Part shown: positions 6,427 to 7,326 of the stretch, piece after piece
How the letters are laid out: each line of letters starts with the position of its first letter
Numbering within the stretch: position 1 is the first letter of the stretch
DNA from: Candidatus Poribacteria bacterium
Lineage (GTDB): Bacteria; Poribacteria; WGA-4E; WGA-3G
Assembly (NCBI GenBank): GCA_022820835.1
Contig: JAJEET010000027.1
Span: 1-32,768 of the forward strand
Reading direction: 5' to 3'
DNA length: 32,768 nt
Program-made: the position numbers and the translations under genes
The notes under the pieces: generated by a model
What the model was told of the DNA's origin: nothing
Databases searched by the model: none
Seen by the model: the letters and a program-made list of their open reading frames with translations, nothing else

Positions 6427-6786
6427 TTAGTTAGCAACTTGCGCGCTGAAGGCTCCTGCACCTTCGACTGCTTTCACGAGCGCGTCTGTCTCAACTTTCC
6501 CCTTTTCAATCTTCACCACAGCATTGTTATCCGTCGAAGAAACACTCACGACTTCAGAAACACCGGTGACCTTGCTAAGTGCATCCTGCACCGCACTGGT
6601 ACACGAGCCTCACGTCATACCTGTCACAGCCAGTGTAACTTCTTCAATGCTTGCTGCTGTTTGATCGGGTGTTTCTGTCGCTTGGGTTTCTGTTTCTGCT
6701 GGTTTCTGCTGGTTGTCCGCACAAGCAAAAACAAATAAAAGTGCCGCGAGGCAGACAAATAGCGTTCTCACGTTCAAATGACGCAT
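6427..6786 (-). CDS. HMA-domain lipoprotein with in-frame TGA (putative selenocysteine) in the metal motif, copy 1
   Basis: Reading on the minus strand from ATG at 6786, with AGGGGA upstream, gives 119 residues if the TGA at 6610-6612 (codon 59) is decoded as selenocysteine. Residues 1-21 form a lipoprotein-type signal (LLFVFAC) and a Thr/Glu/Gln-rich linker follows. From about residue 48 there is a full heavy-metal-associated (HMA, CopZ/MerP-like) domain: EEVTLAVTGMT-U-GSCTSAVQDAL, then GVSEVVSV, AVVKIEKGKV, ALVKAVEGAG. In the HMA family this position is the first Cys of GMxCxxC, which binds Cu(I), Hg(II) or Zn(II). The product would thus hold metal through a selenolate and a thiolate in the periplasm or outer envelope. 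A hairpin begins 17 nt after the TGA. Alternatives are a premature stop or pseudogene. The intact frame beyond TGA and the same TGA in its paralogue argue against these. Confidence 0.85.
6578..6592 (-). promoter_or_regulatory. Candidate bacterial SECIS hairpin, HMA copy 1
   Basis: On the minus strand, GTGCA-GGA-TGCAC forms a 5-bp stem, plus one G-U pair, with a 3-nt loop beginning with G. That G is the 24th nucleotide after the TGA. As I recall, bacterial SECIS elements have a G among the first loop bases and lie 16-37 nt downstream of the UGA, so this fits. It is within coding sequence, as expected for bacteria. Confidence 0.6.
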
Positions 6787-6811
6787 CTGTTTATTCCCCT
6801 TATCGATAGCG

Positions 6812-6827
6812 GCGATCTCCAGATCGC
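6812..6827. repeat. Intergenic 7-bp palindrome between the two HMA genes
   Basis: GCGATCT-CC-AGATCGC forms a perfect 7-bp inverted repeat. It lies about 25 bp upstream of the copy 1 start, so it would fall in the 5' untranslated region or in an operator. It also resembles short REP-like palindromes; which role applies cannot be told. Confidence 0.5.
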
Positions 6828-6853
6828 TGTATCTTATATTAAGTTCTTATCCC

Positions 6854-6885
6854 GATAAAAAGAAAGGGTGGGAAACCCACCCTTT
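6854..6885 (-). terminator. Intrinsic terminator of the second HMA selenoprotein gene
   Basis: A perfect 10-bp stem AAAGGGTGGG/CCCACCCTTT (6863-6885, loop AAA on the plus strand), read on the minus strand, is followed by CTTTTTATC. It begins about 10 bp after the stop at 6896. This should separate the copy 2 transcript from copy 1, so copy 1 probably has its own promoter, which I could not place with confidence. Confidence 0.8.
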
Positions 6886-6895
6886 GTATTAAGCC

Positions 6896-7291
6896 TTATT
6901 TAGCAGCTTCGGCACTGAAGCCAGCACCTTCAACTGCAGCAGTAAGAGCCTCAGTCGTAACTTTACCTTTCTCAATTTTCACAACAGCCGTATTACTCAC
7001 ATCGGAAACGCTCACCACTTCAGAGACACCGGGGAGCTCGCTAAGTGCAGCCTGCACTTTGCTGGTACACGAGCCTCAGGTCATACCCGTGACATTCAGT
7101 GTGATCTCTTCAATGGCGGCTTTCTCCACGGCTTCTGCTACGTCACTGGCACTTTTCGCATCAGATTTCATGGCGGCACTGTCTATTTCTGTAACGGGAG
7201 TAGACATCTCTGCCTTCTGTCCCATCATACCACAACCGACCATGAACGCAAAAGCGATAAGACAAATCAGTGATAATTGTACAATACGCAT
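6896..7291 (-). CDS. HMA-domain lipoprotein with in-frame TGA (putative selenocysteine) in the metal motif, copy 2
   Basis: The start ATG (7289-7291) has a strong AAGGAGG (7299-7305). Decoding the TGA at 7076-7078 (codon 72) as selenocysteine gives 131 residues. The N-terminus is a lipoprotein signal with lipobox MVGC (Cys 20), followed by a Met/Ala/Ser/Asp-rich linker of about 40 residues. The HMA domain is complete: EEITLNVTGMT-U-GSCTSKVQAAL, PGVSEVVSVSD, AVVKIEKGKV, ALTAAVEGAGFSAE, stop TAA. It is clearly paralogous to copy 1 in the domain while the linkers have diverged, yet the TGA and the downstream hairpin are conserved. That is the strongest evidence that the TGA is read as selenocysteine. 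Expected role: periplasmic soft-metal binding or delivery. The partner transporter is unknown. Confidence 0.88.
7043..7059 (-). promoter_or_regulatory. Candidate bacterial SECIS hairpin, HMA copy 2
   Basis: On the minus strand, AAGTGCA-GGC-TGCACTT forms a perfect 7-bp stem with a 3-nt loop starting with G. It is extendable by two G-C pairs beyond an A/A mismatch (7040-7062). The first loop G is again nucleotide 24 after the TGA, the same position as in copy 1. Confidence 0.65.
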
Positions 7292-7326
7292 GGGTTAACC
7301 TCCTTGAATATTTATTTGCTTATTAT

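What the first reader, a model, noticed from the sequence alone, without database searches (positions are those of the whole stretch)
6427..7291. Tandem HMA-domain lipoproteins with selenocysteine in place of the first metal-binding Cys
Both genes carry an in-frame TGA at the first Cys of the HMA motif GMTCxxC, giving GMT-U-GSC, and both read on through a complete HMA domain to TAA. The paralogues have diverged elsewhere, so a shared TGA is unlikely to be chance. A U-x-x-C metal site should hold Cu(I), Hg(II) or other soft metals differently from C-x-x-C. I do not know of a well-described Sec-containing HMA lipoprotein family; sporadic mentions in metagenomic selenoprotein surveys cannot be excluded.
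Basis: partly seen in the sequence, partly recalled or inferred. Interest (0 to 1): 0.93.

Follow-up and report, generated by a model that had tools for sequence, protein, structure and literature searches.

The report
Selenocysteine-armed metal-binding lipoprotein pair
Two neighbouring genes of an uncultured Poribacteria bacterium very likely make lipid-anchored metal-binding proteins with selenocysteine in place of one metal-gripping cysteine, and relatives in the same phylum are predicted to string up to four such selenium sites along one protein, one more than the largest number listed in a 2026 review of bacterial and archaeal selenoproteins.

Summary
Two minus-strand genes (6896-7291, 6427-6786) each carry one in-frame TGA, exactly at the first Cys of the HMA motif (GMT-U-GSC), and read on through a complete HMA domain to TAA. 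The genome has selA, selB, tRNA-Sec and a selD that itself contains TGA. In fetched Poribacteria loci 128 of 138 distinct HMA domains have TGA at this codon, 10 have a Cys codon, none anything else. A hairpin with G-first apical loop follows at a fixed place; its silent codon positions are frozen (GTG 127/128, CAG 117/117, GCA 126/126) and slip where Cys replaces Sec. Selenocysteine is all but certain in silico. The tandem duplication predates the family; the family of genes spans the order. At least five genomes have multi-HMA proteins; four complete ones hold three or four TGA domains plus a final Cys domain. A wider scan found Sec-HMA domains in many phyla. Sec in HMA-type proteins is not new as such (P-type ATPase UxxC, UxxU protein, a MerP listing); the exported UxxC lipoprotein pair and the bead strings were not found described. 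Most likely function, inferred only: soft-metal trapping outside the cytoplasm, Cu(I) first; mer operon partners were not found.

The parts
6896..7291 (-). Gene A: Sec-HMA lipoprotein (predicted), 131 aa, ends in TAA
7076..7078 (-). TGA (codon 72) of gene A, first Cys position of the GMTCxxC motif
7043..7059 (-). SECIS-like hairpin of gene A, 7-bp stem AAGTGCA/TGCACTT with apical loop GGC; stem begins 19 nt after the first base of the TGA
6917..7102 (-). HMA domain of gene A (PF00403)
7232..7234 (-). Cys20, lipobox-like Cys of gene A (nearly invariant in the 24-row alignment)
7299..7304 (-). AGGAGG, likely ribosome-binding site of gene A
   Evidence: read from the sequence
6427..6786 (-). Gene B: tandem paralogue, 119 aa, ends in TAA
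6610..6612 (-). TGA (codon 59) of gene B
6578..6592 (-). SECIS-like hairpin of gene B, apical loop GGA
6454..6636 (-). HMA domain of gene B (PF00403)
6721..6723 (-). Cys22, lipobox-like Cys of gene B
   Evidence: position counted from the sequence

Best explanation
The two genes encode HMA-fold proteins, predicted to be lipid-anchored outside the cytoplasm, in which an in-frame UGA followed by a conserved hairpin is very likely read as selenocysteine, so that the metal site is predicted to be Sec-x-x-Cys, which would trap soft metal ions, most likely Cu(I), at the cell envelope. Shown by sequence: the UGA at the first Cys codon, the Sec machinery in the same genome, the TGA/Cys alternation, the frozen hairpin, the HMA domain, the lipobox-like signal and the old tandem duplication. 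Inferred: insertion of Sec, export and lipidation, metal binding, and the choice of metal. In known HMA proteins the first Cys is the exposed one that starts ligand exchange (recalled). A selenolate there would stay deprotonated, would be a softer and faster ligand, and its oxidised form would be easier to recover, which would suit an oxidising envelope. In this genome the CopZ-like protein and the copper-type ATPase keep plain CxxC, while the four HMA proteins with export-type N-termini carry UGA, so Sec goes with location here. Tandem copies, fusions and bead strings would raise capacity or hand metal on to a final Cys-only domain.
For: Sec: selA; tRNA-Sec, anticodon tca, 76.4 bits, beside selB; selD with its own TGA, CAGU. 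selB over cut-off in 75 of 84 genomes of the phylum and in 54 of the 55 best ones. TGA 128, Cys 10, other 0 of 138 domains. Hairpin codons: GTG 127/128 against 229/1215 further downstream in the same frames, CAG 117/117 against 10/97, GCA 126/126 against 159/747; silent diversity 0.02, 0.00, 0.00 at codons 7, 8, 10, and 0.20-1.19 at the other codons of 1-27. All four core pairs Watson-Crick in 127 of 128 Sec domains, in 1 of 9 readable Cys domains and in 0 of 3 Cys fusion orthologues. Median dN/dS 0.33 behind the hairpin. Orthologous fusion protein: Cys in 3 and TGA in 11 of 14 fetched loci, all 14 matching the own fusion outside the HMA part. Export: 113 of 128 Sec domains lie in frames with a lipobox-like signal; of the other 15, 13 are beads, one is the own cytochrome-WD40 fusion and one (L074) shows a lipobox by eye. 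In G034 and G038 the second Sec-HMA lipoprotein is fused to a module that lies directly downstream of the pair in nine other genomes of the genus and whose database relatives often carry Ig-like or LamG domains of secreted proteins. Fold: HMA core with pLDDT over 90, best Foldseek match MerP 1osd (TM 0.93 on the target), then Cu-ATPase domains; nearest PDB sequences are copper ATPases. MerT over cut-off in 1 of 84 genomes and 0 of the 72 of the order; MerA over cut-off in 0 of 84. Own pump: TIGR01511 copper-translocating ATPase 582.8 bits, cut-off 397; own 73-aa protein: TIGR00003 copper ion binding 64.6, cut-off 62.
Against: Single-sequence folding of the two hairpins is not unusual (z +0.41 and -0.92), and no Rfam family reached its cut-off in the window. 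Relatives are not independent, so the codon statistics overstate significance. No metal gene was seen conserved beside the pair: in 18 of 20 loci a GIY-YIG/UVR-type protein lies near, and the downstream module has no Pfam or NCBIfam match and gave no usable model. HMA folds bind Cu, Hg, Zn, Cd and others; the sequence does not settle which. Many MerA-like flavoproteins exist below the MerA cut-off (77 of 84 genomes at E 1e-100). Three f4 genomes have a Sec-HMA protein with one extra residue between Sec and Cys, and three f4 genomes also have or may have Cys forms.
Confidence: 0.6

Rival explanations
1. Mercury trap: the proteins are MerP-like extracytoplasmic Hg(II) binders, where selenolate would give extreme affinity, and they act alone as a sink.
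For: Best structural match is MerP; Sec-containing MerT, MerP and MerB-like proteins are listed in surveys.
Against: MerP model scores 45.1 and 44.6 bits, cut-off 92.55; MerT in 0 of 72 genomes of the order and MerA over cut-off in 0 of 84, so no import or reduction partner was found.
Confidence: 0.2
2. Redox protein: the UxxC pair works as a selenol/thiol redox couple in the envelope on an HMA scaffold, not as a metal site.
For: The 2026 review holds most uncharacterised selenoproteins, many with UxxC or CxxU, to be redox proteins (PMC13188914, section 7); one Sec-HMA domain is fused to a planctomycete-type cytochrome c domain and WD40 repeats.
Against: The fold is HMA, not thioredoxin-like; GMTUxxC keeps the metal-site consensus; frames of pump size in other phyla show the same change in an N-terminal HMA domain.
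Confidence: 0.15
3. Ordinary stop, pseudogene, or TGA read as Trp: the TGA is not selenocysteine.
For: Public gene calls end such proteins at ...VTGMT or read the TGA as Trp (15 of 89 hits read).
Against: TGA was only seen in place of the first Cys; 14 of the 128 Sec-domain frames and 4 of 18 large window ORFs end in TGA, so TGA is also a stop here; hairpin, machinery and selection as above.
Confidence: 0.02

Closest known systems
[quoted passage not shown] TIGR01525, ABB15669.1)
   Same: Listed as a predicted UxxC selenoprotein (tables of PMC2398784 and PMC13188914); one search shows GMTUxxC in N-terminal HMA domains of pump-size frames.
   Different: Part of a pump; here separate exported lipoproteins, fusions and bead strings. 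That the Sec of ABB15669.1 lies in its HMA domain is my inference; the record was not fetched.
NF041115 UxxU metal-binding (seleno)protein
   Same: HMA-like small protein with Sec in the metal motif.
   Different: Two Sec (UxxU); here Sec then Cys; 53.3 and 50.2 bits, cut-off 95.
MerP (TIGR02052) and the MerP entry of the GOS selenoproteome
   Same: Extracytoplasmic HMA domain (recalled); MerP stands in the GOS selenoprotein table with a first count of 2 (PMC2398784). Best fold match.
   Different: Below the MerP cut-off, lipobox-like signal, no mer genes found. The GOS table gives no motif, and the word MerP does not occur in the main text of the 2022 and 2026 reviews.
NF045683 MerT/CopZ fusion-like heavy metal transport selenoprotein
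   Same: Named a selenoprotein, with an HMA part.
   Different: No MerT part here; 38.1 and 35.2 bits, cut-off 375.
CopZ family metallochaperone (NF047957)
   Same: Best NCBIfam match by E-value.
   Different: 54.2 and 56.4 bits, cut-off 85; CopZ is cytoplasmic with CxxC (recalled), and this genome has a Cys CopZ-like protein as well.
Selenoprotein P of animals
   Same: Exported chain with several Sec (recalled); a comparison for the bead strings only.
   Different: No relation tested; the beads are repeated HMA domains.

Membership tests
HMA domain family (PF00403) | Match over the Pfam cut-off (24.8 bits) | tested here: met
   37.3 and 45.2 bits with U read as C; fold supported by model and Foldseek
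HMA domain family (PF00403) | CxxC metal pair | tested here: not met
   First Cys is UGA in both genes, so UxxC; Cys forms exist among relatives. The domain belongs to the family by profile and fold
Bacterial selenoprotein | In-frame UGA at a position where homologues have Cys | tested here: met
   128 TGA, 10 Cys, 0 other of 138; fusion orthologues 11 TGA, 3 Cys
Bacterial selenoprotein | SECIS hairpin just behind the UGA with G in the apical loop | tested here: met
   Conserved at the nucleotide level, though single-sequence energies are ordinary; definition of the bacterial SECIS recalled
Bacterial selenoprotein | selA, selB, selC, selD in the genome | tested here: met
Bacterial selenoprotein | Sec found in the protein | not testable with these tools
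   needs 75Se labelling or mass spectrometry
Lipoprotein | Signal peptide with lipobox Cys | tested here: inconclusive
   By eye and regular expression only: 113 of 128 domains in lipobox-like frames, Cys20 nearly invariant; no signal predictor was at hand
MerP (TIGR02052) | Score over 92.55 bits and mer partners | tested here: not met
   45.1 and 44.6 bits; no MerT in the 72 genomes of the order
UxxU metal-binding (seleno)protein (NF041115) | Two Sec, score over 95 bits | tested here: not met
   One Sec, 53.3 and 50.2 bits. Bead protein L063 reaches 179 bits only summed over five stretches
CopZ metallochaperone (NF047957) | Score over 85 bits | tested here: not met
   54.2 and 56.4 bits, and a signal peptide is present. 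Bead proteins L061 and L063 pass it summed over 4 and 5 stretches
Cu(I) binding protein | Binds Cu(I) | not testable with these tools
   needs purified protein

The most novel reading that the evidence does not exclude
Poribacteria coat their envelope with a selenium-based metal-binding layer: Sec-x-x-Cys HMA lipoproteins in tandem, a cytochrome-WD40 fusion, a fusion to a secreted module of unknown family, and bead-string proteins with three or four Sec domains ending in one Cys domain. The bead strings would be the most Sec-rich proteins on record from bacteria, a bacterial counterpart of metallothionein or selenoprotein P that soaks up Cu(I) or Hg(II) and passes it along a Se-to-S relay.
Probability: 0.4. 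Interest if true: 0.88.

Novelty: new variant of a known kind. Interest (0 to 1): 0.72.

Why it matters
It turns a sporadic survey entry into an order-wide, duplicated and structurally elaborated predicted selenoprotein family that public gene calls cut off at the TGA or misread. It makes a clear question testable: why put selenium into a copper- or mercury-type site, and, in this genome, only in the exported proteins? It also offers chains with up to four predicted Sec sites, each with its own hairpin, as natural test cases for repeated bacterial Sec insertion; a 2026 review counts 2-3 Sec at most beyond the usual one (PMC13188914, section 7).

Tried and rejected
Random stop or recoding to Trp: rejected, see the third rival. 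Single-sequence hairpin stability gave no signal, so I relied on silent-site conservation. Rfam scan of the window: no match at gathering scores. Metal clue from neighbours: none; recurring neighbours are a GIY-YIG/UVR protein and PhyH-like dioxygenases (one member of each scanned). The module downstream of the pair in nine g3 genomes, fused in two more, has no Pfam or NCBIfam match, no PDB relative by sequence, and its model is useless (mean pLDDT 34), so I did not search its fold. Mercury operon: not found. Crude hairpin test in other phyla: only 17 of 62 stretches beat 95% of shuffles, so there the case rests on HMA similarity (59 of 62 at E below 1e-5, though the pattern itself asks for HMA residues) and on selB over cut-off in 25 of 27 genomes tested out of 62 stretches (one of the 27, L122, is itself Poribacteria; L079 had no match at E 1e-30 and L114 only one below cut-off). 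Paper searches listed no paper whose title or abstract describes an exported UxxC HMA lipoprotein or a bacterial protein with four Sec; most hits were seen as listings only, and subscription journals are mostly not in the library.

Full report
1. Observation. Genes A (6896-7291) and B (6427-6786), both minus strand, each hold a single in-frame TGA in GMT-TGA-GSC and run to TAA. Read through, each matches the HMA family over the Pfam cut-off. AGGAGG precedes gene A. Both begin with a signal peptide and a lipobox-like Cys.

2. Organism and machinery. The three best hits that carry an organism name are 'Candidatus Poribacteria bacterium' (P0021, P0023, P0077), and 84 genomes of the phylum are held. 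The window's genome (5.43 Mb, 163 contigs, 93.5% complete) has selA, tRNA-Sec (tca) beside selB and selD with TGA in CAGU. selB over cut-off occurs in 75 of 84 genomes, 54 of the 55 that are at least 90% complete and at most 5% contaminated. The one good genome without it, G004, has only a weak HMA-like match with a TAG in it.

3. Spread in the phylum. 79 of 84 genomes have a match to gene A at E 0.001. In the printed rows, which are capped, 70 of the 72 genomes of the order (families f1-f4) have a match with a TGA (not G027 and G051; my count). Among the 12 genomes outside the order only G012 shows a TGA match, and that one has a TAG as well. So the family of genes is order-wide rather than phylum-wide.

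4. Cys/TGA alternation. A profile search of the fetched Poribacteria loci gave 178 domain hits; one without the motif was dropped and copies were merged, leaving 138: TGA 128, TGT 7, TGC 3, other 0. Most of these loci were picked by similarity to gene A. As a freer sample, the Pfam HMA search of 22 relatives lists 113 matches over cut-off, 63 with one TGA and 50 without (my count); of the 50, 25 lie in frames of 672-855 aa (pump size) and 17 in frames of 72-121 aa (mostly chaperone size, one of them a Cys lipoprotein-size frame of 114 aa). In the fusion family (planctomycete cytochrome c + WD40 + HMA; own copy scanned) all 14 fetched loci match the own protein outside the HMA part at 55-88% identity over at least 426 aa; 11 have TGA, and G015, G019 and G022 have Cys. 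14 of the 128 Sec domains lie in frames that end in TGA, so TGA is also a stop.

5. Hairpin. Behind the TGA every Sec domain has GTG (one GTA), CAG or CGG, any codon, GCA (two GTA), CTN at codons 7-11. This forms a stem whose loop begins with G at position 27 counted from the T of the TGA; the loop has 3 nt where 26-30 pairs (115 of 128) and 5 nt otherwise (13). Codon choice: Val GTG 127/128 against 229/1215 further downstream in the same frames, Gln CAG 117/117 against 10/97, Ala GCA 126/126 against 159/747. Pair 24-32 is GC 126, AT 1, GT 1; pair 26-30 is AT 106, GC 7, GT 2, AA 11, GA 2. Silent diversity at codons 7, 8 and 10 is 0.02, 0.00 and 0.00; the other codons of 1-27 lie between 0.20 and 1.19. 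The four core pairs are all Watson-Crick in 127 of 128 Sec domains, in 1 of 9 readable Cys domains and in 0 of 3 Cys fusion orthologues. Against this, single-sequence folding energies are ordinary. The sequences are related, so the Fisher values must not be read as independent tests.

6. Selection and age. Past the hairpin (codons 13-27) median dN/dS is 0.33 over 4738 usable of 8128 pairs (paralogues included). In a tree of 112 small genes (107 columns, 31 of 107 inner branches open) the 48 upstream and 48 downstream tandem genes separate with two label changes each; within family f1 the 46 upstream and the 46 downstream genes fall on different sides of a well-supported branch, and the two f2 pairs sit with single-copy f3 and f4 genes. 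So the duplication predates the split of family f1, and both copies kept TGA in the genes seen.

7. Elaborations. Own genome: two more Sec-HMA genes, a third lipoprotein-like one on C55 (ESMDUGGC) and the 540-aa fusion on C5. Bead strings: L061 and L062 (330 aa) and L064 (332 aa) have three Sec HMA domains and one Cys domain; L063 (406 aa) has four Sec and one Cys; each Sec bead has its own hairpin, most beads are 73 aa apart, and a ribosome-site-like motif precedes the start (Pfam counts 5 HMA stretches in L063 and 4 in L064). G027 has a contig-end piece with two Cys beads and no TGA. In G034 and G038 the second Sec-HMA lipoprotein (GMAUGVC) runs on into a module of about 400 aa that lies as a separate gene directly downstream, on the same strand, in nine other genomes of genus g3 (positions compared by me). 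The module has 837 database relatives, many with Ig-like or LamG domains (120 listed), but no family name. Of 15 database hits that I read, several small ones end at ...GMT, three read the TGA as Trp, and the bead strings appear as pieces (P0021 and P0023, named 'cation transporter', 129 aa).

8. Other phyla. A pattern scan of the collection of 84,980 species genomes for GMTUxxCxxxVxxA with a following L or F and no C-start codon after V, set so to avoid the VQ common in Poribacteria, gave 62 stretches; 59 match the HMA profile at E below 1e-5. They include CopZ-size proteins of Bacillota, N-terminal domains of pump-size frames (Aquicultor, Chloroflexi, Tissierellia and others) and lipoprotein-like proteins of Pirellulaceae and relatives (types judged by eye). 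One of the 62 is Poribacteria (L122). selB over cut-off: 25 of the 27 genomes tested.

9. Function. The model has the HMA fold with block means of pLDDT over 90 in residues 61-130 before the tail; nearest structures are MerP and Cu-ATPase domains, nearest sequences Cu-ATPases. No mer operon was found. The genome's Cys HMA proteins are a 73-aa copper-binding-type protein and an ATPase over the copper-translocating cut-off (TIGR01511). The four Sec-HMA proteins begin with export-type N-termini as read by eye. From this I infer soft-metal trapping in the envelope, Cu(I) first, with selenium used because the site works outside the cytoplasm. That selenolates bind soft metals more tightly and stay deprotonated is general chemistry, recalled.

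10. Prior art. The GOS survey lists MerP and a P-type ATPase UxxC as selenoproteins (PMC2398784, passages). The 2026 review (PMC13188914: section 7, parts 1 and 2 of 3 read, with the whole table; passages elsewhere; [quoted passage not shown] MerP, Poribacteria, lipoprotein and HMA do not occur in its main text. It also notes multiple Sec in some archaeal FrhD/VhuD proteins, listed there with 2. The 2022 review was seen in passages only (PMC9312934) and deep-Sep (PMC12013277) by a term search without hits. Other papers were seen as listings.

Noticed in passing
L182 (G012:C129) and L122 (2796-2839): A Poribacteria Sec-HMA gene has, besides TGA, an in-frame TAG where relatives have the Gln codon inside the hairpin; pseudogene, assembly error or amber read-through cannot be told apart.
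   Followed up: partly
L190, L195, L196 (G025, G024, G026): Family f4 genomes carry a Sec-HMA protein with one extra residue between Sec and Cys (U-G-x-S-C).
   Followed up: partly
G050 contigs C181, C359, C371, C350, C455, C144: One relative has six more TGA-bearing HMA matches beyond its tandem pair and its fusion, four of them in frames of about 100 aa.
   Followed up: no
L086, L087, L090, L097, L103, L106, L108, L114, L128, L133, L137: Pirellulaceae and relatives (Planctomycetota) have their own set of lipoprotein-like HMA proteins with PGMTUGGC, likely another overlooked selenoprotein family.
   Followed up: partly
L088 (Tissierellia): An open frame with two successive GMTUASC HMA domains, so two predicted Sec; the frame runs off the fetched stretch.
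   Followed up: no
L140 (1107-2657), L145 (3698-5227), and single genes in L066, L158, L170, L171, L146, L143, L141, L148, L075: A module of about 400 aa without a family name, with an invariant HNHGHQLE stretch, sits behind the Sec-HMA pair in genus g3 and is fused to it in two genomes; a possible partner.
   Followed up: partly
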